64,000 nucleotides of DNA, from positions 4,619,001-4,683,000 of the forward strand of contig NZ_CP053538.1 in the NCBI RefSeq assembly GCF_013137895.1. The letters run 5' to 3'. Source of the stretch: Hymenobacter taeanensis. GTDB lineage: Bacteria > Bacteroidota > Bacteroidia > Cytophagales > Hymenobacteraceae. The position numbers and the translations under genes were made by a program. This document shows, one piece after another, positions 45,981 to 57,363 of this stretch. Below the pieces are notes generated by a model. The model was not told where the DNA came from. It was given only the letters and a program-made list of their open reading frames with translations, and searched no databases. The number at the start of each line of letters is the position of its first letter. Positions within the stretch are counted from its first letter, which is position 1.

Positions 45981-46658
45981 ATGAAACTATTGCTGGTAGA
46001 AGACGAGCCGAAGTTGGCGTCATTCGTTAAAAAAGGCTTTGAGAACGAGGGCTATGAGCTGGAAGTGGCCTACGATGGCCGCCTGGGGCTTTCGTTAGCC
46101 CAAAAACAGCCTTACGGCCTGGTTATTCTGGATGTAAACCTGCCCCACATCAATGGCTTTGAGCTCTGCCGGCTTATCAAGCAGCAGGCCCCGCAGCAGC
46201 CCATACTCATGCTCACGGCTCTGGATAGTCTCGATGATAAAGTGATGGGGTTTGAGGCCGGCGCCGACGATTACCTGGTGAAGCCTTTTGAGTTTAAGGA
46301 GTTGCTGCTGCGCGCCCGCGTGCTCACCCGCCGCCACGCCGAAGGGGCCGCCGTGAAGCACCTGCTTCGCATTGCCGACCTAGAGCTTAATCTGGACTCG
46401 AAAGCCGTTACCCGTGCCGGGCAGCGCATTGATCTTACCACCAAAGAATATGCCCTGCTGGAATACCTGCTGCTCAATAGAGGCAAGGTTATCTCGCGCG
46501 TTGACATTGCGGAAAAGGTCTGGGAGCTGAATTTCGACACCAATACCAACGTCATTGACGTGTACGTGAGCTACCTGCGCAAGAAGCTTGATAAAGGCTA
46601 TGACACCAAACTGATTCATACGGTAGTAGGTATGGGCTATGTACTGCGCGAAGGGTAG
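45981..46658 (+). CDS. OmpR/PhoB-family response regulator
   Basis: A 225-residue DNA-binding response regulator. The receiver domain (1-115) has the acidic pocket EDE (7-9), phosphoacceptor Asp51 in VILDVNLP, Thr in MLTALD and Lys in DYLVKPFEF. The winged-helix output domain (about 125-223) carries LTTKEYALLEYLLLNRGKVISR and the NVIDVYVSYLRKKLDKG recognition region. Closest in style to the CusR/CopR/RprY-like regulators. It precedes a histidine kinase on the same strand. Proteins of this class bind head-to-tail direct repeats of about 11 bp, matching the TAATG arrays at 48240, 48642 and 51253, which makes it their likely activator (inferred). Confidence 0.94.
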   Translation: MKLLLVEDEPKLASFVKKGFENEGYELEVAYDGRLGLSLAQKQPYGLVILDVNLPHINGFELCRLIKQQAPQQPILMLTALDSLDDKVMGFEAGADDYLVKPFEFKELLLRARVLTRRHAEGAAVKHLLRIADLELNLDSKAVTRAGQRIDLTTKEYALLEYLLLNRGKVISRVDIAEKVWELNFDTNTNVIDVYVSYLRKKLDKGYDTKLIHTVVGMGYVLREG

Positions 46659-46859: not shown

Positions 46860-48242
46860 ATGCTCATTCGCAACAAGCTGATTCTGCGCTTCACCCTGCT
46901 GGTGGTAGGCATTCAGCTGTGCTTTTCTATCTTCATTTACTACTTCCAGGCCAGCAACCGGGAGCAGCGTTTCGTGAACCGCCTGGCTGGCAAAGCGGCC
47001 ATGACCGCGCGCGTTCTGCTGCACCGAGACAGCATCAATGATGAGCTGCTGCGCACCTTGCACCGGCGTGATTTGTTTACCGTACCGGGCGAGCAAATAA
47101 GCATTTATGGCCCTGGTCACCACTTGCTTTATACTAGCGCCGATGGCCTGAGCCAAAAGCTCAACTCCTTCTATCTGCCGCGCATTAAGCCTAGCCGGCC
47201 GGTGCAGTTCCGGGATGGGCAGCTGGAAACTATTGGCCTGTACTATGAGCGCAATGGCCGGCCTTACTGGATATTCGCCGCCGGCCACGATGACTTTGGG
47301 CACCGCCAGATGGTGAGGCTATGGCTGATTTTACTGGCGGCCAATCTGGGGGCGCTGGTGCTGATTATTCTGGCGGGCTGGTACTTCGCGGATGAGTCAC
47401 TGAAACCAATTTCGCGCATTATTGCACAGGTAGAGCGCATTACGGCAACGCAGCTGAGCACCCGGGTTGATGAAGGCAATGGCACCGACGAAATAGCCCA
47501 GCTGGCCCGCACCTTCAACCATATGCTGGGTGGAGTAGAGCAGGCCTTTGAGTCGCAGAAAAGCTTTCTGAGCAATGCTTCCCATGAGTTACGCACGCCC
47601 TTGGCGTCAGTGCTGGGCACCCTGGAAACGTCCTACGCCTACGATACCGATCTGGCCGAAGCCAAGCACAGCATTGGCTCGGCCACGGAAGAAATCAAGA
47701 AGCTGATTGAGCTGACCAACGGGCTGCTGAGCTTAGCCAAAGTTACGGATGCCTCGTTTCGCCGCGACCTGGTGCGCCTTGATGAGTGCCTGGCCCAGGC
47801 CATTGCCTCCTGCGAAAAGCGCCACCCCGGCCGAAGCATAAAGCAGCAGTTTGGCCAGCTCCCTCCCGAGGTGGAGGATATGTTTATGGTGCGCGGCAAT
47901 GAGCAGCTGCTCACCACTGCCCTGCTTAACCTGCTCGATAATGCCTGTAAATATTCGCAGGATGGGGTGCAGGCGTTGCTCAGCTACCCCTCCACCGACG
48001 CCATCGAAGTCAAGATTACGGACACCGGCATTGGTATGGAGCCTCATGAGCTAGCCCGCATTTATGAGCCCTTATACCGCGCTGGCACCAACACTACCGC
48101 CCCCGGCTATGGCATAGGCCTACCCATGACGCGCAAAATTGTGCTGCTGCATGGTGGCCAGATTCAGCTTACCTCAGTGGTTGGGAAGGGTACCACGGCC
48201 AGCGTTAAGCTCCCCGCCGCTACCGCTGGGCCCGGTCTCTAA
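46860..48242 (+). CDS. HAMP-containing sensor histidine kinase
   Basis: A 460-residue inner-membrane kinase, partner of the preceding regulator. ATG 46860 (MLIRNKLILRF) is chosen; a longer in-frame reading lacks features. Helix 1 spans about 10-29, a periplasmic sensor of about 120 residues follows (LYTSADG, DGQLETIGLYY segments), then helix 2 (about 153-176), HAMP (177-230) and the dimerisation domain with His242 in SHELRTP. The ATPase domain has N (NLLDNACKYS), G1 (DTGIGM) and G2 (GYGIGLP) boxes. The layout is like CusS-type kinases; the signal is not known. The TAA stop coincides with the first half-site of the downstream repeat array. Confidence 0.93.
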   Translation: MLIRNKLILRFTLLVVGIQLCFSIFIYYFQASNREQRFVNRLAGKAAMTARVLLHRDSINDELLRTLHRRDLFTVPGEQISIYGPGHHLLYTSADGLSQKLNSFYLPRIKPSRPVQFRDGQLETIGLYYERNGRPYWIFAAGHDDFGHRQMVRLWLILLAANLGALVLIILAGWYFADESLKPISRIIAQVERITATQLSTRVDEGNGTDEIAQLARTFNHMLGGVEQAFESQKSFLSNASHELRTPLASVLGTLETSYAYDTDLAEAKHSIGSATEEIKKLIELTNGLLSLAKVTDASFRRDLVRLDECLAQAIASCEKRHPGRSIKQQFGQLPPEVEDMFMVRGNEQLLTTALLNLLDNACKYSQDGVQALLSYPSTDAIEVKITDTGIGMEPHELARIYEPLYRAGTNTTAPGYGIGLPMTRKIVLLHGGQIQLTSVVGKGTTASVKLPAATAGPGL

Positions 48243-48293
48243 CTTTTTCTAATCTTCTTCTCATATCGTTTTAATGTTGTGGGGCAAGTTTTG
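48240..48293 (+). promoter_or_regulatory. Phased direct-repeat promoter, copy 1 (degenerate)
   Basis: Half-sites TAACT (48240), TAATC (48250), TCATA (48261) and TAATG (48272) are spaced 10, 11 and 11 bp. A TTTG follows whose G (48293) is 17 bp after the end of the last half-site. The geometry equals that of the two better copies at 48642 and 51253, but only one half-site is a perfect TAATG. Confidence 0.45.
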
Positions 48294-48297
48294 CGCC

Positions 48298-48570
48298 ATG
48301 GCTGGACTTCCCCTAACTTCTTCCGCCTCCCGCAACAGGCTCCTGGTATGGCTTCTGCTGGGTACTCTGTTGCTGTCAACGGGGCTCAACCTGTATTTGC
48401 TTTTCCAGAACCCCGAATACCCCGAGGATTATGCCCTTGATGCTCCACTGCTCGAAACAATGGCTGAGGTAGAGTTGCAGCAAACGCGCCGGGCGCTGGC
48501 AGAGTGCCAGGCGGGCTACTCCTTCACGCCCGATAGCCTGGCGCATGCTTCGGCTCCGAAAGGGCAATAG
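48298..48570 (+). CDS. Small single-span membrane protein of unknown function
   Basis: A protein of 90 residues if started at ATG 48298 (MAGLPLTSSASRNR), or 98 residues from ATG 48274. It has one hydrophobic helix (about residues 15-37; LLVWLLLGTLLLSTGLNLYLLF) followed by a polar tail with a single Cys in LAECQAG. I do not recognise a family. It lies 31-55 bp after the kinase gene, and the 48274 start would fall inside the regulatory half-site, so 48298 is preferred. With the -7 TTTG ending at 48293 the message could be leaderless. It could modulate the kinase or the pump, but that is speculation. Confidence 0.6.
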   Translation: MAGLPLTSSASRNRLLVWLLLGTLLLSTGLNLYLLFQNPEYPEDYALDAPLLETMAEVELQQTRRALAECQAGYSFTPDSLAHASAPKGQ

Positions 48571-48641
48571 TCATTCACCTGTTAAGCGGGTACACCTGAG
48601 GTTTAAAACGGTAAAGAGTGTAGGCTAGCTGCCCCATTTTT

Positions 48642-48695
48642 TAATGTTTTCTAATGTAAGATTAATGCTCTCCTAATGTGCGGGCCTGTCTTTTG
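48642..48695 (+). promoter_or_regulatory. Phased TAATG direct-repeat promoter of cysteine-rich gene
   Basis: Perfect TAATG half-sites at 48642, 48652, 48663 and 48674 (spacing 10, 11, 11). TTTG follows, with G at 48695, 17 bp after the last half-site. Head-to-tail repeats of one helical turn are the usual target of OmpR/PhoB-type activators, and this places the protein next to the -33 region. The start codon at 48800 implies a leader of about 100 bases. Confidence 0.75.
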
Positions 48696-48799
48696 GCGCT
48701 TTTCCCACCAAGCGCTGCAAGGCGGGCCCGTTGCATTTTAAGCGCAGAGCTCTGCGCTCTGCCTGCGGCAAGCGCGTTCTTTTTCTTACTTCCTTTCCC

Positions 48800-49135
48800 A
48801 TGCTCCCCCGCCAACAACACGTTTTAGATGCACTTAATTCTTGCCTCATTGCCTGCGAACATCTGGCTCTTACTGGCCTAGAGTTGCCAGAACTGCACCG
48901 AGGCGTGCGCCTAAGCCGCGACTGTGCCGACCTCTGCCGCCTTACCGCCACCTTTGTTATGCGCCAGGCAGAGCATACTGTGCACATCCTGCGCGAGTGC
49001 GCTGAGTTGTGCCGCTCCTGCGCCGATGAATGCACTCAGTTTTCCAATGAGGCTGCTCGCACGTGCACTGAAACCTGCCGCCGGGCCGAAGATGCCTGCC
49101 GCACTGCTTTCATAACGCCCACGTTTGCGCCCTAG
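48800..49135 (+). CDS. Cysteine-rich four-helix bundle protein (Csp/DUF326-like copper storage)
   Basis: A 111-residue cytoplasmic protein without signal peptide, starting at ATG 48800 (MLPRQQHVLDALNSC). It contains 11 cysteines, mostly as CxxxC on predicted helices: Cys15/19, 42/46, 67/71/74/78, 89/93 and 100. It also has histidines at 7, 21, 33, 59 and 62. The layout matches four-helix-bundle copper-binding proteins (PF03860/DUF326), whose Csp members store many Cu(I) ions inside the bundle. It follows a TAATG-repeat promoter shared with the RND pump, so metal or redox stress probably induces it. Copper binding is inferred from family. Confidence 0.85.
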   Translation: MLPRQQHVLDALNSCLIACEHLALTGLELPELHRGVRLSRDCADLCRLTATFVMRQAEHTVHILRECAELCRSCADECTQFSNEAARTCTETCRRAEDACRTAFITPTFAP

Positions 49136-49278
49136 GCCTATCGGCTATCAGGCACTAGCGCAAGCGGCAACCGCCAGAAACAACAACCGCACTTTTCCAG
49201 CCATTCAGCCCATCGGCTGTCCAGCTGGAAAAGTGAGGTTGCTCTGGGGCCTGGCATCCGCTGCTTCGTGGTGGCTTA

Positions 49279-50688
49279 CTACTCCAGGTCGGGGTTGGCT
49301 ACGGGGTGGGGTACTGGGCGGTTTGGCACAGGCTGAGCCAATGCTTCGCGCAGGAAACCGGTTTTTAGGTGTTCATAAAAGGAATGCGGATCAATAAGCG
49401 AAGCCACTGCCTGAGCCATCATGCCACTGAGTAGCAGCTGGAAGATAGCTGAGTGGCGGTCCGTCATTTCCAGAACCAGAATGGCCGCCGTGAACGGGGA
49501 GCGTACTACCCCGGTCAGGAAGCTTACCATGCTCACCAGAATCAGTAGGTTGCGGTCTTCCAGAGGCACCTGGCCCAGGCGGCACAACGCATCACCGAGC
49601 ACGGCACCGGCACTCAGGGAGGTAGCAAAAATACCGCCCGCACCACCACTGCTGTAGCTCAGGGCCATACCGGCAAATCGCACCGGAAAAAGGTACCACG
49701 GCGTTTGACCATCGTTTTGAAACAAAAGGCGGTTGATAATAGGCTTACCCGTGCCCACCCCCTCCTGGCCTACGGCGTAGGCCAGTGCTGCCAGCAGCAG
49801 GCCGCACCCCACTACCCACGCCGCCTGCTGGAGTCTGGTAGCGTAGCGGCGCCGGTAGGCATTAATCCAGAGCAGAGTTTTGGCAAAGGCGGCTCCCGCC
49901 AGGCCACATAACACCGCCACCAATGCCACGGTAGCCAAAAACCATCCTGCATGTGCCGTCACCTTCGGAAACCCGAGGTACAGGTAAGACCCCAGCAACG
50001 TTTGCGCCGTGAGGCCCGCCACAATAACTGCCGAAAATACCGCCATCCGGAAGCGGGCCATGTGCATCTGAGTCAGTTCCTCCACCACAAACACAATCCC
50101 TCCCAGCGGCGTGTTAAAGGCGGCAGCTAGTCCGGCCGCGCCCCCGGTCACGAGGGCAATTTGCCGGGAGAGCTGGGGCCAGCCAGCGGGTTGCAAGCGG
50201 TTTATAGCCCGAAAGATGGCGGCTGATATTTGAATGGTAGGCCCCTCGCGCCCAATTACGCCGCCTCCCAGCAGCAGGGCTACGCTGCTCAACAGCTTTA
50301 CAATGGCCACCCGCAAGCTCAGCAGGTACCCCGTCCGGTGGTGTTGCGAGGGTTTGGAGAGCTCAATGCCCGCCATGAGTTGCGGGATACCACTTCCGCG
50401 GGCAGCCGGCGCCCAGCGCTGCACCAGCCCCCACGACACCAGAAAAGCCAGCGGCGTGAGCGCAAACGCCAGCAGTGGCTGCCGTTGCAGCCACCCAAAG
50501 CTCACGGCCTCTGCCCACACAAACACCTTCTCGTACCCCACCGCCACAACGCCCACAATAATGGAGGCGAACCAAAACGGAAAGCTTTGGAGAATAAGCC
50601 GTCTGACGCGGTCGGTGTAAAGTTGCTGGAGGATATGTGTATCAAACCATGATAGAGCTTTGGCGTAGCGCGAACTGGATGCAGGCAT
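49279..50688 (-). CDS. ClC-family chloride channel/antiporter
   Basis: A 469-residue integral membrane protein. The selectivity-filter motifs are present: GSGIPQLMAG (helix D region), GREGPTIQIS with the gating Glu, and the later SSGGAGGIFATSLSAGAVLG segment; a conserved filter Tyr is not placed with confidence. Length fits a bacterial ClC without CBS domains. It may exchange chloride or fluoride for protons. The start at 50688 (MPASSSRYAKALSWFD) is straightforward. The gene is on the minus strand, convergent with the Csp-like gene; whether it belongs to the stress regulon is uncertain, as no TAATG array precedes it. Confidence 0.92.
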   Translation of the reverse strand: MPASSSRYAKALSWFDTHILQQLYTDRVRRLILQSFPFWFASIIVGVVAVGYEKVFVWAEAVSFGWLQRQPLLAFALTPLAFLVSWGLVQRWAPAARGSGIPQLMAGIELSKPSQHHRTGYLLSLRVAIVKLLSSVALLLGGGVIGREGPTIQISAAIFRAINRLQPAGWPQLSRQIALVTGGAAGLAAAFNTPLGGIVFVVEELTQMHMARFRMAVFSAVIVAGLTAQTLLGSYLYLGFPKVTAHAGWFLATVALVAVLCGLAGAAFAKTLLWINAYRRRYATRLQQAAWVVGCGLLLAALAYAVGQEGVGTGKPIINRLLFQNDGQTPWYLFPVRFAGMALSYSSGGAGGIFATSLSAGAVLGDALCRLGQVPLEDRNLLILVSMVSFLTGVVRSPFTAAILVLEMTDRHSAIFQLLLSGMMAQAVASLIDPHSFYEHLKTGFLREALAQPVPNRPVPHPVANPDLE

Positions 50689-51252
50689 GCACGAGGGGAT
50701 AAAAATGAAGCTACTACCACCAGGGCAGTACGGTCAGGTAGCAGAACGGGTGGGTGCTAAGAAGGATACAACTATGGGAAACCGCTGGAGAGGGCCAAGC
50801 TACGGGGGCTGTCATAAACGACACATGAAGCAAGAGCTGTTTGTACCAGGTATGCGCGGCCCCGCGCTCAGCGGCCAGGCTCAGAGAATGCGGCTTTCCT
50901 GTTGTTACAACTGCGCAAAACATGAAAACGTTGTTATCCACTCAAAACTGCGCCCGTGCGCAGCAGTGGTGGCAGAGGGTGAGGCGTGTGCCCTTCCCGG
51001 CGAAGGCTGCCCGAAAACAAGCCATGTGCTTTGGGCGTACGTACCGCACAAAAGCAGGAGGCCATTGCACACCGGAACAGCAATGAGGCTTGTGTGGTCA
51101 GGGGGCTGGCTTCCTACACCTGGGCTGGCAATGAGGAGCAAAACTACTTTATAGCTCACTAGTTAGCACTATCAGGCGGGGGGCAATTGCCTCAACTGGC
51201 TTAATTGCCTCAGCCTGACAAACCCTTTCCAGACGGCATGAAAGGCCTTTTC
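50689..51252. other. Gene-free stretch upstream of the efflux operon
   Basis: About 560 bp between the ClC start and the efflux promoter. Several open frames here have no recognisable protein features and compete on both strands, so I list none. A 10-bp direct repeat AATTGCCTCA occurs at 51185-51194 and 51203-51212 (18-bp period) just upstream of the TAATG array. Nothing else structured is seen. Confidence 0.5.
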
Positions 51253-51306
51253 TAATGTCTTTTAATGTTGTTCTAATTCTACGCTAATGTTTGGCGTAGA
51301 GCTTTG
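51253..51306 (+). promoter_or_regulatory. Phased TAATG direct-repeat promoter of RND efflux operon
   Basis: Half-sites TAATG (51253), TAATG (51263), TAATT (51274) and TAATG (51285), again spaced 10, 11 and 11 bp. The TTTG ends at 51306, 17 bp after the last half-site. The start codon at 51349 gives a leader of roughly 40 bases. The same geometry as at 48642 strongly suggests one regulator. Confidence 0.75.
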
Positions 51307-51348: not shown

Positions 51349-52512
51349 ATGCAACCTCTCCGCTCACTCCGATACAGTTTACTTACCTGGATTCTTCCTT
51401 CTATGCTAGGCCTGGGCCTTTCTGGCTGCGGGACTGACACGCAGGCCAACACAGCCACTTTGGCCAAGGATGCGCCGCCTACTTTGCCGGTAACGCAGCT
51501 AAACGCCCGCGACACAATTCTGAGCCATGATTATGTAGCCGATATACAGGCCGTGCGCAACGTGGAAATTCGGGCGCGGCTGGAAGGCTTTCTGGAGCAG
51601 ATCTACGTGGATGAGGGCCAGACAGTACGCAAGGGTCAGCCGCTGTTCCGCATCAACGATACCGAGTATAAGAGCCGGCTCACGAAGGCTCAGGCCGAGC
51701 TAAGTAGTGCTCAGTCGGCGGTTAGGGTAGCCAAGCTGCAGGTAGAGCGCGTCAAGCTGCTCACGGATAAGAATATCATTTCCAAAACGGAGCTGGAAGT
51801 GGCCCGGGCCAAGTATGAAGCGGCCCAAGCAATGGTGCAGCAGGCGCGCACGGCCGTAGCCAACGCCTCTCTGCATCTCTCCTACACGCTGGTGCGTGCC
51901 CCGTTTGATGGCGTTATAAACCGCATTCCGCTTAAAATGGGGAGTGTGATTGAAGATGGCACCCTGCTTACTACAGTGTCAGATATTCACGCCATGTTCG
52001 CGTACTTCAACGTGTCGGAGGCGGAGTATCTCGAGTATGTAAAGAAGAGCGGTCAGGACTCAGCCCGCAGCACCAACGAGGTTCGGTTGCTGCTTGCCGA
52101 TGGCTCTACCTACCCCGTAAAAGGCAAAGTAGAAACCGTGGAGAGCCAGTTCCAGGCTAACACTGGCTCCATCGCCTTCCGGGCCCGCTTCGACAACCCC
52201 AAGAAGCTGTTGCGCCACGGCGCCTCGGGCCGTGTGCGCCTGAGCAGCACCGTAGAAGACGCCGTGCTGGTACCCCAGAAGTCGGTGTTTGAAGTGCAGG
52301 ACAAAAACTACGTGTACATGGTAGATGCGGCTGGTAAGGTCAAGCAACATCCCTTTCAGCCCCAAACTCGCCTCTCCGATTTCTACGTGGTGAAAACGGG
52401 CCTTAAGAGCGGCGACAAAGTAGTGTACGAAGGTGTGCAGGAACTGCGCGACGGGGCCAGCATCACACCTAAATACGTGAAGATGGACGACCTAATCAAC
52501 GAAGCGAGATAA
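51349..52512 (+). CDS. RND efflux periplasmic adaptor (membrane fusion protein)
   Basis: A 387-residue lipoprotein linking the RND permease to the outer-membrane channel. ATG 51349 gives a lipobox LGLSGC with Cys27. The layout is biotinyl-lipoyl half (RLEGFLEQIYVDEGQTVRKGQPLF), an alpha hairpin coiled coil (about 90-165; SRLTKAQAELSSAQSAV...), the second lipoyl half (LVRAPFDGVINRI), a beta-barrel domain and a membrane-proximal domain. It is of the AcrA/MexA type. It is first in the three-gene operon and lies directly behind the TAATG-array promoter. The permease follows after 109 bp. Confidence 0.94.
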   Translation: MQPLRSLRYSLLTWILPSMLGLGLSGCGTDTQANTATLAKDAPPTLPVTQLNARDTILSHDYVADIQAVRNVEIRARLEGFLEQIYVDEGQTVRKGQPLFRINDTEYKSRLTKAQAELSSAQSAVRVAKLQVERVKLLTDKNIISKTELEVARAKYEAAQAMVQQARTAVANASLHLSYTLVRAPFDGVINRIPLKMGSVIEDGTLLTTVSDIHAMFAYFNVSEAEYLEYVKKSGQDSARSTNEVRLLLADGSTYPVKGKVETVESQFQANTGSIAFRARFDNPKKLLRHGASGRVRLSSTVEDAVLVPQKSVFEVQDKNYVYMVDAAGKVKQHPFQPQTRLSDFYVVKTGLKSGDKVVYEGVQELRDGASITPKYVKMDDLINEAR

Positions 52513-52621: not shown

Positions 52622-55600
52622 ATGTTTGCACTCTTCATTCGCCGACCGGTTCTCTCGCTGGTTATATCTCTGTTTATCACGTTTCTGGGTGGCCTAGCGC
52701 TGTTTTCGCTGCCCATTACGCAGTTCCCCGACATTGTGCCCCCCTCCGTAACCGTTACGGCCCGCTACACCGGCGCCAACGCCGAGGTGTGTGCTAAAGC
52801 CGTGGCCACGCCGCTGGAGCGCGCCATTAACGGGGTGCCGGGCATGACCTACATCTCGTCGGTGAGCAGCAACAGCGGCATCACGCTTATCACGGTGTTC
52901 TTTCAGGTGGGTACCGACCCCGACCTGGCGGCCGTGAACGTGCAGAACCGCGTGCAAACAGTAATTGATGAGCTGCCCGAGGAAGTAATTAAGGCCGGTG
53001 TAAGCACCGAGAAAGAGGTAAACAGTATGCTGCTGTACCTCAACGTGATGAGCGAAGACCCCAAGGTGAACGAGAAGTTCATTTACAACTTCGCCGACAT
53101 TAACGTCCTGCAGGAGCTCAAACGCATTGACGGTGTGGGCTTCGCCGAAATCATGGGCCAGCGCGAGTACTCCATGCGCGTGTGGCTGCACCCCGACCGC
53201 ATGGTGGCCTACAACGTGTCGGCTGATGAGGTTGTGGAGGCCATCAGGGCCCAGAACGTGGAAGCGGCACCGGGTAAGTCGGGGGAAAGCTCGGGCCAGG
53301 ATGCGCAGATGCTGCAGTACGTGCTGCGCTACACCGGTAAAATGTTTGAGCCCAAGCAGTACGAGGACATTGTGCTGCGTGCCAACCCCGATGGCTCCGT
53401 GCTGCGCCTCAAAGACGTGGCCCAGGTGAAGTTTGACGTGCTCAGCTACGGTATGGTCTCTAAGATAGACGGTAAGCCCTCGGCGGCCATCATGCTCAAG
53501 CAGCGCCCCGGTTCTAATGCCTCCGATGTTATTAAGAACGTGAAAGAGCGCATGGCCGAGCTGAAAGGAACTTCCTTCCCGCCCGGCATGACCTACAATG
53601 TGGCCTACGACGTGTCGCGCTTCCTTGATGCCTCCATTCATGAAGTACTGCGGACGCTAGTGGAAGCCTTCTTACTGGTATTTGTGGTAGTGTACTTGTT
53701 CCTGCAAGACTGGCGCTCCACGCTCATTCCGGCCCTGGCCGTGCCGGTTGCGCTGGTGGGCACGCTGTTTTTCATGCAACTGCTGGGCTTCTCCATTAAC
53801 CTGCTCACGCTGTTTGCGCTGGTGCTGGCCATTGGTATTGTGGTAGATAACGCCATTGTGGTGGTAGAAGCCGTGCACGCCAAAATGCACGAGAAGCACC
53901 TTTCCGCCATGGATGCTACCCTGGAAGCCATGGGCGAGATTGGCGGCGCTATTGTGGCCATTACCCTGGTGATGTCGGCGGTGTTTGTACCGGTGTCGTT
54001 CATGGATGGCCCGGTGGGCGTATTCTACCGACAGTTTTCGCTTACGCTGGCTATTTCCATTGTTATTTCTGGGGTAAACGCTCTTACCCTCACGCCGGCC
54101 TTATGCGCCTTAATGCTGAAGCCCACCCACGCCATTGAGGGCGATACGCCGGATGCGGCTAACCGCAAGCTCGGCCTGCTTGATAGGTTTTTTGCCGCTT
54201 TCAACCGCCGCTATGAGTCACTGGCCACGGGTTACCAGCGCCTGGTGCGCACAATAGCCAGCCGGCGTATGATTACGGTGGCCCTGCTGATTGGCTTCTG
54301 CCTGGCCACCTGGGGCGTTAACTCCATCCTGCCCTCGGGCTTTATCCCGACGGAAGATCAGGGCATGATTTACGTGAACGTGACCACGCCCCCCGGCGCC
54401 ACCGTGGAGCGTACCGAGAAGGTGCTCGACCAGATCCAGAAGGCTGCGGCCAAGCTGGGCCCGGTAGAATCGGTGTCGACGCTGGCGGGCTACAGCCTCA
54501 TGAACGAAGTAGCTGGCGCCTCTTACGGCATGGGCATGATCAACCTGAAGGCCTGGGACGACCGCAAGCAATCAGTAAACGAGTTGATTTCCGTCCTCAA
54601 CAAACAAACTGAAAGTATCACCGACGCTGATATTCAGTTCTTTGCTCCGCCCACGGTGCCCGGCTTCGGCAACTCCGGCGGCTTTGAGCTGCGCCTGCTC
54701 GACCGCACCGGTCGCGGCGACCTGCAGCAGACGGCTAAAGTTTCAAATGAATTCATTGCGGCCCTTACCAAAACACCCGTGGTAGGCTCCGCCTTCACCG
54801 GCTTCGACGCTAGCTTTCCGCAGTACCTGATTCACGTAGACCAGGACCAGGCCGCCAAAAAAGGCGTGACCGTTGATCAGGCGATGAGCACCCTGCAAAC
54901 GCTGATGGGCTCTTACTACGCCTCCAACTTCATCCGCTTCGGGCAGATGTATAAGGTGATGGTACAAGCGGCCCCCGGCTACCGCACCCAGCCCGAGGAC
55001 GTGCTGAAAATGTACGTAAAAAACAACCGCAACGAGATGGTGCCCTACTCCTCGTTTGTGCGCTTGGAGCGCGTGTACGGGCCTGAGCAGCTCACCCGCT
55101 ACAACATGTACACCTCGGCCATGCTTAATGGCGATGCCGCCGCCGGCTACTCCTCCGGGGATGTAATCAAAACCATTGAGGAGGTAGCCGCCAAAGAGCT
55201 ACCCCGCGGCTACACCTACGAGTGGAGTGGCATGACCCGCGAGCAAATCCTGAGTGGTAACCAGGCCATTTATGTGTTTGCGGTGGTGCTCCTGTTCGTG
55301 TACTTGCTGCTGGCTGCGCAGTATGAAAGCTTTTTGCTGCCACTGCCAGTAATTCTGAGCCTGCCCACCGGTATTTTCGGAGCCTTCCTGTTCCTGAAGC
55401 TGCTAGGCCTAGAGAACAACATCTACGCTCAGGTTTCACTGGTCATGCTGATCGGTTTGCTAGGCAAAAACGCCATTCTGATTATTGAATTTGCGGTTTT
55501 GAAGCGCAAAGAAGGCCTTTCGGCATTGGAGGCGGCCGTGCAAGGTGGTTACTCCCGCCTGCGTCCAATTCTGATGACCTCCTTCGCCTTTATTGCTGGC

Positions 55601-55813
55601 CTCATTCCGCTCACCATTGCCGACGGCGCGGGCGCCTTGGGTAACCGTTCTATTGGTACCGCAGCAGCCGGCGGCATGTTCATTGGCACCCTGTTTGGCG
55701 TCATTCTGATTCCGGGCCTGTACGTGCTGGTATCTGGACGCGGTAAAGCCAACAAGAAACAGCCAGTAACGGAGCCTGAAAGCACCCTCGAACCTGCCCA
55801 CGCCACGGCCTAG
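52622..55813 (+). CDS. RND efflux permease, HAE1 (AcrB-like) family
   Basis: A 1063-residue inner-membrane proton/drug antiporter with twelve helices and two large periplasmic loops. The N-terminus FIRRPVLSLVISLFITFLGG and PITQFPDIVPPSVTVTARYTGA is typical of the hydrophobe/amphiphile (HAE1) class, not the heavy-metal (CusA) class. Conserved TM4 residues occur in ALVLAIGIVVDNAIVVVE, and the TM10-11 region has LLGKNAILIIEFA. It would expel toxic organic compounds from the periplasm. It lies between adaptor and outer-membrane factor, 62 bp before the latter. Confidence 0.95.
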   Translation: MFALFIRRPVLSLVISLFITFLGGLALFSLPITQFPDIVPPSVTVTARYTGANAEVCAKAVATPLERAINGVPGMTYISSVSSNSGITLITVFFQVGTDPDLAAVNVQNRVQTVIDELPEEVIKAGVSTEKEVNSMLLYLNVMSEDPKVNEKFIYNFADINVLQELKRIDGVGFAEIMGQREYSMRVWLHPDRMVAYNVSADEVVEAIRAQNVEAAPGKSGESSGQDAQMLQYVLRYTGKMFEPKQYEDIVLRANPDGSVLRLKDVAQVKFDVLSYGMVSKIDGKPSAAIMLKQRPGSNASDVIKNVKERMAELKGTSFPPGMTYNVAYDVSRFLDASIHEVLRTLVEAFLLVFVVVYLFLQDWRSTLIPALAVPVALVGTLFFMQLLGFSINLLTLFALVLAIGIVVDNAIVVVEAVHAKMHEKHLSAMDATLEAMGEIGGAIVAITLVMSAVFVPVSFMDGPVGVFYRQFSLTLAISIVISGVNALTLTPALCALMLKPTHAIEGDTPDAANRKLGLLDRFFAAFNRRYESLATGYQRLVRTIASRRMITVALLIGFCLATWGVNSILPSGFIPTEDQGMIYVNVTTPPGATVERTEKVLDQIQKAAAKLGPVESVSTLAGYSLMNEVAGASYGMGMINLKAWDDRKQSVNELISVLNKQTESITDADIQFFAPPTVPGFGNSGGFELRLLDRTGRGDLQQTAKVSNEFIAALTKTPVVGSAFTGFDASFPQYLIHVDQDQAAKKGVTVDQAMSTLQTLMGSYYASNFIRFGQMYKVMVQAAPGYRTQPEDVLKMYVKNNRNEMVPYSSFVRLERVYGPEQLTRYNMYTSAMLNGDAAAGYSSGDVIKTIEEVAAKELPRGYTYEWSGMTREQILSGNQAIYVFAVVLLFVYLLLAAQYESFLLPLPVILSLPTGIFGAFLFLKLLGLENNIYAQVSLVMLIGLLGKNAILIIEFAVLKRKEGLSALEAAVQGGYSRLRPILMTSFAFIAGLIPLTIADGAGALGNRSIGTAAAGGMFIGTLFGVILIPGLYVLVSGRGKANKKQPVTEPESTLEPAHATA

Positions 55814-55875: not shown

Positions 55876-57363
55876 ATGACCTCACTCCTCTCCATACGTT
55901 CAGTTATTAACCGTTTTCTTCCGGCACTAGCTGGCCTGGCGCTGGCAACCAGCTGCCGGGTAGCAGCGCCGACGATGCAGCCGGCTGCCGCCTCTATGCC
56001 CTCCCGCTTTGCTGCCACCACCACCGACTCTGCCTCAATCGGGGCGTTGTCATGGCAGGAGTTTTTCGGAGACAAAAACCTAATCGGCCTCATCGACACG
56101 GCCTTGCAGGCCAACCCCGATTTGCGCACCGCCATTCAGCGCATTGAAATTGCACGGGCTACCCTGCAGGTGCAGCGCGGCGCACTGCTGCCCGCCATTA
56201 ATGGCGTGGCAAGTGCCGGCGTAGAGAAGTACGGCGACTACACCCTCAACGGCATTGGCAACTACGACACCAACTTATCGCCCAATGTGGAGGGGCGGCA
56301 GCGCATTCCTACCCCTACCCCTGACTTCTTCCTGGGGCTGCGCAGCTCCTGGGAGCTGGATGTCTGGGGCAAATTACGGCAGCGCCGGAAAGCAGCCTAC
56401 CTTCGGTTGCTGGCCTCAGAGAAGGGCCGCCATCTGGTAGAAACCTCCCTGGTAGCGGAGGTTGCCCGCCTTTACTTTAATCTGCTAGGCCTCGATAATG
56501 AGCTTACTGTACTAACCAAAAACCAGCGCCTGCAGGAGCGCGCCCTCGAAATTGTAAAAGTTCAGAAGCGCGCGGGCCGTGCCAATGAGTTGGCCGTGCA
56601 GCAGTTTACCGCGCAGCTGCTGCGCACGCGTAGCCTGGAAGCAGAAACCCAGCAGCGCATAGTGGCCACCGAGAATGAGCTGAACCGCTTGTTGGGCCGC
56701 TATCCGCAGCATATTGCTCGGGGCTTACCTATTCTGCAGCAACCCCTCCCGGCGCAAGTGCAGGTGGGCTTACCCGCTACCATGCTCCAGCGCCGCCCCG
56801 ATGTGCAGCAGGCCGAGCTGGAAATGGTAGCCGCCCGAGCCGATGTAGCCGCCGCTCGAGCTGCCTTCCTGCCATCTCTCACGCTTACGCCTTTTGTGGG
56901 TGTAAATGCTTACCGCGCCTCGGTGCTATTTAATACCCCCGGCTCCCTGGCCTACGGGCTGCTGGCGGGCCTGAGCGGCCCCCTCATCAACCGCAATGGC
57001 CTCAAGGCCGACTACCGCCGCTCAGCGGCCGAGCAGCAGATAGCCTACAACGACTATCAAAAAGCGGTGCAAACCGGCTTTGAGGAAGTAACTACCAACC
57101 TGCGCGGAATAGGTAACTACCAGCGTGTGTTTGAGTTGCAGCAGCAGGAAGTAGATGCGCTGAACAAAGCCGTCAGCATCTCCGACGATCTGTATAAAGC
57201 CAATTATGCTTCGTACCTAGAGGTAGTTACGGCCCAACGCAATGTGCTGGAAGCCGAGCTCAACCTCACCACCACACGCCGCCAGCAGTTCCTCTTGCTT
57301 ATCGATCTGTACCGCGCCCTGGGCGGCGGCTGGACGGCCAGTGCCACGCCTATTACTAAATAA
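55876..57363 (+). CDS. RND efflux outer-membrane factor (TolC/OprM-NodT type lipoprotein)
   Basis: A 495-residue outer-membrane channel lipoprotein. The lipobox LALATSC places lipidated Cys27. Two OEP repeats follow, each with long helical hairpins: the first around IEIARATLQVQRGALLPAINGV, the second around RRPDVQQAELEMVAARADVAAARAAFLPSLTLTPFVG, the signature of the NodT/OprM family. The C-terminal part contains ANYASYLEVVTAQRNVLEAEL. It completes the adaptor-permease-channel operon and is followed by a terminator. Length is normal. Confidence 0.94.
   Translation: MTSLLSIRSVINRFLPALAGLALATSCRVAAPTMQPAAASMPSRFAATTTDSASIGALSWQEFFGDKNLIGLIDTALQANPDLRTAIQRIEIARATLQVQRGALLPAINGVASAGVEKYGDYTLNGIGNYDTNLSPNVEGRQRIPTPTPDFFLGLRSSWELDVWGKLRQRRKAAYLRLLASEKGRHLVETSLVAEVARLYFNLLGLDNELTVLTKNQRLQERALEIVKVQKRAGRANELAVQQFTAQLLRTRSLEAETQQRIVATENELNRLLGRYPQHIARGLPILQQPLPAQVQVGLPATMLQRRPDVQQAELEMVAARADVAAARAAFLPSLTLTPFVGVNAYRASVLFNTPGSLAYGLLAGLSGPLINRNGLKADYRRSAAEQQIAYNDYQKAVQTGFEEVTTNLRGIGNYQRVFELQQQEVDALNKAVSISDDLYKANYASYLEVVTAQRNVLEAELNLTTTRRQQFLLLIDLYRALGGGWTASATPITK

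What the first reader, a model, noticed from the sequence alone, without database searches (positions are those of the whole stretch)
48240..51306. Three promoters with identical phased TAATG arrays define a candidate OmpR-type regulon
At 48240, 48642 and 51253 four TAATG-like half-sites recur with the same 10-11-11 bp spacing. In each case a TTTG -7 element has its G exactly 17 bp after the end of the last half-site. Nine of the twelve half-sites read TAAT plus one base (seven are exactly TAATG). The sites precede a small membrane protein, a Csp-like cysteine-rich protein and an RND efflux operon, and all lie downstream of an OmpR-family regulator/kinase pair. Head-to-tail repeats one helical turn apart are the known target type of this regulator family. 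Copies two and three are strong; copy one is degenerate.
Basis: partly seen in the sequence, partly recalled or inferred. Interest (0 to 1): 0.8.

Follow-up and report, generated by a model that had tools for sequence, protein, structure and literature searches.

The report
Four-repeat promoter switch in Hymenobacter
Three gene switches beside a sensor-regulator pair share one rigid pattern of four short DNA repeats at a fixed distance from the promoter; the same ruler recurs beside relatives of that regulator in many related bacteria while the repeat letters change with the regulator, which makes its DNA-reading code testable.

Summary
The genome is a Hymenobacter. Arrays at 48240, 48642 and 51253 have four head-to-tail units at 10-11-11 bp, with the G of a TTTG (-7 element) exactly 17 bp after the last unit; shuffled windows give 0.01 matches on average.

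All 27 fetched Hymenobacter orthologues of the response regulator (77-93% identical) have such an array downstream of the kinase. With spacing and -7 distance left free (1,472 geometries), 97 of 109 Hymenobacter regulator loci choose 10-11-11+17 or 11-11-11+17. Outside the genus 11-11-11+17 occurs beside related systems.

No other strong site was found in the genome, so the regulon is local: small membrane protein, Csp-like protein, RND efflux operon. "Degenerate" copy one is the most conserved type.

Best explanation: two dimers of the adjacent OmpR/PhoB-family regulator bind the array and activate from the -35 region. Binding is inferred. Its nearest named kin (CusR/CopR/PcoR) use palindromes; this clade has tandem arrays. 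Recognition-helix residue 197 tracks the half-site letter, on few independent changes and with other columns close behind.

The parts
45981..46658 (+). OmpR/PhoB-family response regulator (225 aa), closest curated family heavy-metal RR (TIGR01387) but below its cut-off
   Evidence: Pfam PF00072 and PF00486; TIGR01387 258.4 bits, cut-off 279.2
46860..48242 (+). sensor histidine kinase (HAMP, HisKA, HATPase_c), 460 aa
   Evidence: TIGR01386 184.1 bits, cut-off 292.55
48240..48276 (+). array 1 (P1): units at 48240 TAACT, 48250 TAATC, 48261 TCATA, 48272 TAATG; 10-11-11; unit 1 contains the kinase stop codon
48290..48293 (+). TTTG -7 element of P1, G 17 bp after array 1
48298..48570 (+). small protein behind P1 (90 aa), single membrane span judged by eye; A of ATG is the 5th base after the G of TTTG
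   Evidence: no Pfam or NCBIfam family at E 0.001
48642..48678 (+). array 2 (P2): four TAATG at 48642, 48652, 48663, 48674; 10-11-11
48692..48695 (+). TTTG -7 element of P2, G at +17
48800..49135 (+). Csp-like cysteine-rich protein (111 aa)
   Evidence: Pfam DUF326; PDB cytosolic copper storage proteins, best 6qvh E=5.1e-7; TIGR04401 24.5 bits against cut-off 100
51253..51289 (+). array 3 (P3): TAATG 51253, TAATG 51263, TAATT 51274, TAATG 51285; 10-11-11
51303..51306 (+). TTTG -7 element of P3, G at +17
51349..52512 (+). RND periplasmic adaptor (387 aa), first gene of the efflux operon
   Evidence: TIGR01730 269.1 bits, above cut-off 94.9
52622..55813 (+). RND permease, HAE1/AcrB type (1063 aa)
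   Evidence: TIGR00915 1068.3 bits, above cut-off 940.35; CusA/CzcA family TIGR00914 348.8, below 701.45
55876..57363 (+). outer membrane efflux protein (495 aa)
   Evidence: Pfam OEP; TIGR01845 265.2 bits, above cut-off 210.05

Best explanation
The three arrays are operators of the response regulator encoded just upstream. [quoted passage not shown] With the last unit ending 17 bp before the G of the -7 element, the promoter-proximal dimer lies over the -35/-33 region and recruits the Bacteroidota sigma factor, switching on a small membrane protein, a Csp-like protein and an RND efflux operon. Shown: the geometry, its conservation and its linkage to this regulator clade. Inferred: binding by this regulator, activation rather than repression, dimer-of-dimers occupancy, and the signal (envelope or metal stress is a guess from the kinase and Csp similarity).
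For: All 27 fetched Hymenobacter orthologue loci carry the array downstream of the kinase. TAAT-TAAT distances at 28 loci pile up only at 10, 11, 21, 22 and 32 on the gene strand, with at most one at any distance on the other strand. TTTG is at +17 in 44 of 47 arrays. A geometry-free search picks 10/11-11-11+17 at 97 of 109 regulator loci; 4 of 109 opposite-strand controls have +17 at all. 124 of 125 linked model hits are on the regulator's strand; 103 of 114 regulator genes have a listed hit within 8 kb, and variant or unlisted arrays sit at 8 of the 11 others. 79 of 80 genomes with the regulator at E<=1e-90 have a model hit at E<=0.01, against 12 of 21 without. The spacing label needs 2 changes on the regulator tree against a shuffled mean of 28. 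In Ser-197 regulators units 2 and 4 never carry TCA while units 1 and 3 often do (0/70, 0/70, 27/70, 64/70), as expected for two dimers. A recognition-helix column is the protein column that best predicts the half-site letter. PhoB and PmrA bind tandem half-sites; PhoB contacts sigma region 4 there, for PmrA this is a docking model (PMC3973317, PMC4660055, passages).
Against: No binding, footprint, transcription start or expression data. Operator and regulator are co-inherited at one locus, so their co-variation need not mean contact. Three genomes (loci L175, L177, L188) have 10-11-11 arrays before an unlinked copy of the RND operon while the array beside their regulator is 11-11-11, so either one regulator tolerates both or another reads the unlinked ones. 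12 of 109 loci did not choose the geometry, and 6 of 14 non-Hymenobacter regulator rows have no called array downstream. Eight genomes without the regulator at E<=1e-90 have weak model hits (best E 1.7e-4 to 0.004) that I did not examine. Receiver-domain columns 22 and 11, which should not touch DNA, predict the letter nearly as well as residue 197 (eta squared 0.70 and 0.69 against 0.76), so much of that signal is phylogeny. No array precedes the regulator gene itself in the window.
Confidence: 0.82

Rival explanations
1. The adjacent regulator binds the arrays but represses: bound dimers block RNA polymerase and phosphorylation or dephosphorylation relieves it.
For: The array covers the -35/-33 region, where a bound protein could also block polymerase; PhoB, of the same family, is described as a dual regulator (PMC10294691, passage).
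Against: A rigid 17-bp distance to the -7 element at 44 of 47 arrays is what contact with polymerase demands; a blocker would tolerate drift. The TA of the TAnnTTTG consensus is absent at all 47, which suggests a weak core promoter needing help.
Confidence: 0.1
2. The arrays are read by a different regulator encoded elsewhere, and linkage to this regulator reflects shared pathway, not binding.
For: Some arrays have no homologue of this regulator within about 6 kb (L168, L169, L177, L181, L187, L188, and L173 with a kinase only). Eight genomes without the regulator at E<=1e-90 have weak, unexamined model hits.
Against: Array spacing and letters follow the phylogeny of the adjacent regulator; paralogous regulator systems have their own arrays, including a second system in this genome; the four genomes with a listed (stronger) hit but no regulator at E<=1e-90 each hold a more distant, split or fragmentary homologue at the locus.
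Confidence: 0.06
3. The arrays are phased A/T tracts that bend DNA or act as UP-elements for polymerase, with no specific protein.
For: Units are A/T-rich and spaced by about one helical turn.
Against: In some relatives the whole array is TCAT instead of TAAT with unchanged geometry (L221, L230); single positions are nearly invariant while neighbours vary; strong hits are concentrated at these regulator loci.
Confidence: 0.02

Closest known systems
PhoB/PmrA-type tandem operators (pho box, PmrA box)
   Same: Head-to-tail half-sites about one helical turn apart; PmrA half-sites CTTAAT and CCTAAG with a 5-bp spacer resemble YTAATG; in the PhoB ternary structure sigma region 4 contacts the -35 element and the bound domain, and for PmrA the same is a docking model (PMC3973317, PMC4660055, passages).
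   Different: Four units with fixed 10-11-11 or 11-11-11 spacing, instead of the basic two half-sites, anchored to a Bacteroidota TTTG -7 element at exactly 17 bp.
ArcA multi-repeat binding sites
   Same: OmpR/PhoB-family regulator; 92 of 158 ArcA sites have three to five direct repeats, mostly 11 bp apart (PMC3798270, passages).
   Different: ArcA sites vary in repeat number, spacing, position and orientation; here number, spacing and distance to the -7 are nearly fixed across the clade.
CusR/CopR/CzcR/PcoR/AgrR heavy-metal regulators
   Same: Nearest curated family (TIGR01387) and nearest solved DNA-binding domain (PcoR 2jzy, E=1.3e-24); kinase and RND efflux genes alongside; AgrR also has in-phase direct repeats flanking its inverted repeat and is proposed as a type II activator (PMC7380067, passages).
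   Different: Their core operator is an inverted repeat (PMC11195947, PMC7380067, passages). No matching palindrome lies at the three promoters. The recognition helix reads YVSYLRKK here and AVRRLRSK in PcoR.
Mycobacterium tuberculosis PhoP
   Same: Recognition helix SYVSYLRRK is near-identical to VYVSYLRKK; binds direct repeats (PMC3413638, abstract and passages).
   Different: Two direct repeats 1-5 bp apart and a distant third (PMC3413638, passages); no fixed four-unit array.
Bacteroidota sigma-ABfr promoters
   Same: TTTG of the TAnnTTTG -7 element (PMC7366714, passage).
   Different: TA of the consensus absent in all 47 arrays; the -33 region is taken by array units.

Membership tests
OmpR/PhoB-family response regulator | Response_reg receiver plus Trans_reg_C winged-helix domain | tested here: met
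   PF00072 100.3 bits and PF00486 92.7 bits, both above cut-off
OmpR/PhoB-family response regulator | linked promoters carry head-to-tail repeats about 10-11 bp apart | tested here: met
   48240, 48642, 51253 and orthologous promoters
OmpR/PhoB-family response regulator | regulator binds the site in vitro or in vivo | not testable with these tools
   needs footprint, EMSA or ChIP
Class II (PhoB-like) activated promoter | operator at a fixed distance from the -10/-7, over the -35 region | tested here: met
   17 bp from last unit to G of TTTG in 44 of 47 arrays; one other TTTG among offsets 4-45
Class II (PhoB-like) activated promoter | transcription rises when the regulator is bound | not testable with these tools
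   needs expression data
CusR/CopR/CzcR heavy-metal regulators (TIGR01387) | score above the curated cut-off | tested here: not met
   258.4 bits against 279.2
CusR/CopR/CzcR heavy-metal regulators (TIGR01387) | inverted-repeat operator at target promoters | tested here: not met
   AgrR-type and CusR-type palindromes occur no more often than in shuffles (4 against 3.0; 2 against 4.8) and none at the three arrays. No inverted repeat at P1 or P2; at P3 a 10-nt one (51278-51287/51291-51300) overlaps unit 4 and by eye is not kept in L063 or L089
CusABC/Czc heavy-metal RND efflux | permease of the HME (CusA/CzcA) family | tested here: not met
   HAE1 family TIGR00915 above cut-off; TIGR00914 348.8 against 701.45
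Csp copper storage protein | match to the curated Csp1 family model | tested here: not met
   TIGR04401 24.5 bits against cut-off 100; relation to cytosolic Csp only by weak PDB hits
sigma-ABfr promoter | TAnnTTTG at -7 | tested here: inconclusive
   TTTG present at 44 of 47 arrays, TA at 0 of 47

The most novel reading that the evidence does not exclude
A clade of PcoR/CusR-like regulators in Bacteroidota has traded the palindromic operator of its kin for a fixed four-unit tandem chassis (10 or 11-11-11, then 17 bp to the -7). The chassis is frozen and specificity is written in two places only: one recognition-helix residue (197: Asn reads TAAT, Ser accepts TAAT or TCAT at the weaker odd units, Gly reads TCAT) and the first spacing (10 or 11), which helps keep co-resident paralogous systems apart.
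Probability: 0.3. Interest if true: 0.75.

Novelty: new variant of a known kind. Interest (0 to 1): 0.6.

Why it matters
How OmpR/PhoB-family paralogues sharing one genome avoid each other's promoters is a standing question. Here over a hundred regulator-operator pairs (115 labelled rows) share one promoter ruler and differ in few letters, so the specificity code can be tested by swapping natural regulators and arrays. It also gives a predicted operator and activated-promoter architecture for a Bacteroidota regulator clade. The listings of my library searches showed no description of it: searches found no paper, one search listed 6 of 6, 15 of 184, 12 of 36. That library lacks most subscription journals.

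Tried and rejected
Loose genome scan with up to 3 mismatches: rejected as evidence, because the backward pattern gives almost as many hits (33 against 39). Genome-wide regulon: not found in this genome; apart from the three window sites the best model hits are 18.9 and 16.2 bits and belong to a second two-component system, and the next is 12.0 bits. Palindromic metal-regulator operators: not found. Copper or metal efflux by the RND pump: not supported, the permease is of the HAE1 type. Autoregulation through an array upstream of the regulator: none in the window. First-spacing-as-insulator as a settled claim: not made, because unlinked 10-11-11 arrays coexist with an 11-11-11 regulator-linked array in three genomes. 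Residue-197 code as a settled claim: not made, because only 3 independent pairs exist on starred branches (about 2 agree, 0 disagree, 1 uninformative) and receiver-domain columns score nearly as high.

Rows dropped before counts: 3 of 47 arrays without TTTG at +17 were left out of alignment A1 and model R1, so TTTG is invariant there by selection; the unselected figure is 44 of 47. L078/L203 are one locus, counted twice among the 109. In one search L078, L100, L101, L104, L108 and regulators under 215 aa were left out, and 20 of 135 rows bear no spacing label. In one search five rows did not fit the helix pattern and 14 had no called array. The relaxed score gives C 0.9 and A 1.0 at the second base. 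The 150 hits are the listed part; weaker ones were not listed. One search shows only arrays with TTG at +17; the unfiltered list is.
Full report
WHAT IS THERE. The window lies in a 4.88-Mb single-contig genome (G000:C1:4619001-4683000); the named relatives of its regulator at 77-93% identity are all Hymenobacter. [quoted passage not shown] Three arrays of four units start at 48240, 48642 and 51253, each with spacing 10-11-11 and the G of TTTG 17 bp after the last unit.

IS IT MORE THAN CHANCE. The full pattern has 3 matches in the window against a mean of 0.01 in 100 shuffles. A matrix built only from other species, without the two nearest relatives, scores the three sites 66.5, 48.4 and 47.8 and everything else at most -5.5; the best of 30 Markov windows is -6.3. 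In the whole genome the sequence model R1 finds these three (53.2, 42.9, 42.2 bits; they were among its 44 training rows) and then falls to 18.9 bits. Loose matching is not informative: at up to 3 mismatches the backward control gives 33 hits against 39.

CONSERVATION AT ORTHOLOGUES. One scan of the 84,980-species collection returned 56 loci, of which 27 (L063-L089) are Hymenobacter orthologues. All 27 have at least one array with up to 2 mismatches on the gene strand. Over the 28 loci with the window there are 47 arrays; TTTG is at +17 in 44 and occurs once at any other offset from 4 to 45. Distances between TAAT words in these regions pile up only at 10 (31), 11 (19), 21 (9), 22 (42) and 32 (29); the opposite strand has at most one at any distance from 5 to 40. 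Exact four-TAAT arrays with any spacing of 8-14 number 9, all 10-11-11; 20 Markov replicates gave none. Mean information is 1.25 bits in the array and 0.09 in the upstream flank; the array columns were selected on TAAT, the TTTG (1.7-2.0 bits) was not.

A GEOMETRY SHARED BY A REGULATOR CLADE. I took 109 Hymenobacter regulator loci (window, L063-L089, L190-L270; one locus is present twice, L078/L203) and let spacing (64 triples), -7 distance (23 values) and letters (T[A/C]AN) float. 80 chose 10-11-11+17 and 17 chose 11-11-11+17; 99 scored above every opposite-strand and Markov control. The opposite strand had +17 in 4 of 109. Not above controls were L196, L197, L239, L243, L254, L256 and a variant group (L198-L200, L270) that still has the +17 geometry. 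In 101 genomes (an even sample of the genus) 80 have the regulator at E<=1e-90 and 91 have a model hit at E<=0.01: 79 of the 80 (all but G044) and 12 of the other 21. Of those 12, four have listed hits and a more distant, split or fragmentary homologue at the locus; the eight weaker ones were not examined. Of 150 listed hits, 125 are within 8 kb of one of 114 regulator genes, 124 on the same strand; listed hits accompany 33 of 33 regulators at 80% identity or more, 50 of 54 at 70-79% and 20 of 27 below. Of the 11 without a listed hit, L195 has an exact array below the list's end, L190-L193 carry TCAT/TTAA-type units and L198-L200 TAGA-TAAT-CAAT-TAAT units in the same frame; L194, L196 and L197 show none.

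THE 25 UNLINKED HITS. Twelve lie beside a more distant regulator (54-58% identical) with its own 11-11-11 array; one (L172) beside a regulator matched in two pieces; one (L173) beside a kinase only. L175, L177 and L188 stand before a copy of the RND operon (adaptor 70%, permease 87-88%), L175 with a 35% identical regulator nearby and the others with none within 6 kb. L165 and L169 have a membrane protein downstream that I take for DUF389, and L181 and L187 one that I take for a bestrophin-like protein (labels recalled, not from a call; sequences). L166-L168 and L183 were not resolved further. In the three genomes with unlinked RND arrays the unlinked array is 10-11-11 and the regulator-linked one 11-11-11; this counts against a simple spacing-specificity rule.

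BEYOND THE GENUS. A strict 11-11-11+TTTG@17 pattern has 5 hits in 296 Bacteroidota genomes against 1 for the backward control; 10-11-11 has 4 hits in 3 genomes, two of them of the window's genus, with none for the control. Of the five, three (L157-L159) sit between a histidine kinase and an outer membrane efflux gene and one (L156) after a kinase; the fifth (L155) lies between a sulfate permease and a NamZ-like gene. At the more distant regulator loci L090-L108, unfiltered arrays with at most one mismatch number 23 (overlapping registers included), 10 of them 11-11-11, and 3 have TTTG at 17. Of 14 non-Hymenobacter regulator rows, 8 have a called array downstream and 6 have none.

SECOND SYSTEM IN THIS GENOME. 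At about C1:3560000 (locus L164) a second PcoR/CusR-like pair precedes adaptor and outer membrane genes; both promoters have 11-11-11 CTAAT-type arrays with CTTG at +17. So two co-resident paralogous systems use the same ruler with different first spacing and letters.

CO-VARIATION WITH THE REGULATOR. On a FastTree tree of 135 regulators the spacing label (83 of 10-11-11, 32 of 11-11-11) needs 2 changes; shuffled labels need 28 on average and 0 of 500 are as low. Vertical co-inheritance alone would also cluster the label. Of the protein columns tested, residue 197 in the recognition helix best predicts how many units have C as second base (eta squared 0.76): Asn 0 of 136 units, Thr 0 of 12, Ser 91 of 280, Gly 29 of 36. 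Against this, receiver-domain columns 22 and 11 reach 0.70 and 0.69, so much of the signal is shared ancestry. Among 70 Ser regulators C occurs at unit 1 in 27, unit 2 in 0, unit 3 in 64 and unit 4 in 0. The alternation of a tolerant and a strict unit fits two dimers on units 1-2 and 3-4. Independent evolutionary pairs are few: 3 on starred branches, about 2 agreeing, none opposed. The nearest solved DNA-binding domain is PcoR, whose helix reads TNVIDVAVRRLRSK where this one reads TNVIDVYVSYLRKK; M. tuberculosis PhoP reads NVVESYVSYLRRK.

TARGETS. Behind P1, all 28 loci have an open frame of 70-103 aa that by eye is the same kind of small membrane protein. Its ATG begins 5-6 bases after the G of TTTG in 12 of 28, which would make a leaderless or nearly leaderless message; in the other 16 it is 23-34 bases on. 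The adaptor gene starts 85-104 bp after the start of an array of its own in 14 of 28 loci. A separate Csp promoter with TTTG is seen in the window and L063; L069 has an array there without TTTG.

MECHANISM. By analogy with PhoB, whose tandem-bound domains meet sigma region 4 at the -35, and with the docking model for PmrA (PMC4660055, passages; its authors state they have no direct evidence for PmrA), I infer class II activation with the promoter-proximal dimer over the -35/-33 region. The TA of the TAnnTTTG consensus (PMC7366714, passage) is missing at all 47 arrays, which fits a weak core promoter that needs an activator. A 10-nt inverted repeat overlaps unit 4 of array 3; by eye it is not kept in L063 or L089 and I give it no role. 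Binding, activation and signal are not shown.

NOVELTY. Tandem repeats read by OmpR/PhoB regulators are textbook, and ArcA uses three to five at 92 of 158 sites (PMC3798270, passages). What differs is the rigid four-unit ruler across a clade, in regulators whose nearest named kin have palindromic core operators (PMC11195947, PMC7380067, passages; AgrR adds flanking direct repeats). I rate it a new variant of a known kind. Library searches listed no description of it. The papers cited were seen only as abstracts or found passages.

Noticed in passing
48240-48298: The first half-site of array 1 contains the kinase stop codon TAA, and the ATG of the small membrane protein begins 5 bases after the G of TTTG, implying a leaderless message; a 5-6 base distance occurs in 12 of 28 loci.
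   Followed up: partly
48298-48570 and orthologues: A 70-103-aa protein with an LLxGxLLLSTxLN-like stretch (by eye) follows the P1 array in all 28 loci; the window copy matches no Pfam or NCBIfam family at E 0.001. A feedback modulator of the kinase would be one guess.
   Followed up: partly
L164 (G000:C1:3556000-3566000): Second PcoR/CusR-like two-component system of the genome with two 11-11-11 CTAAT-type arrays and CTTG at +17 before efflux genes.
   Followed up: yes
L175:6003, L177:6017, L188:6016: Arrays before copies of the RND operon away from the focal regulator, with 10-11-11 spacing although the regulator-linked array of the same genome is 11-11-11.
   Followed up: partly
L165, L169, L181, L187: Arrays of the same kind before membrane proteins that look like DUF389 and bestrophin-like families (labels recalled).
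   Followed up: no
L155:1501: A perfect 11-11-11+17 array in another family of the order lies before a sulfate permease gene, with no kinase beside it.
   Followed up: no
L194, L196, L197: Regulator-kinase pairs, regulators 66-69% identical to the focal one, without any recognisable array.
   Followed up: no
51278-51300: A 10-nt inverted repeat with a 3-nt loop overlaps unit 4 of array 3; by eye it is absent from the aligned arrays of L063 and L089.
   Followed up: partly
49279-50688: CLC-type chloride channel gene on the opposite strand between the Csp-like gene and array 3; the protein has tblastn hits in only 4 of the 28 loci.
   Followed up: no
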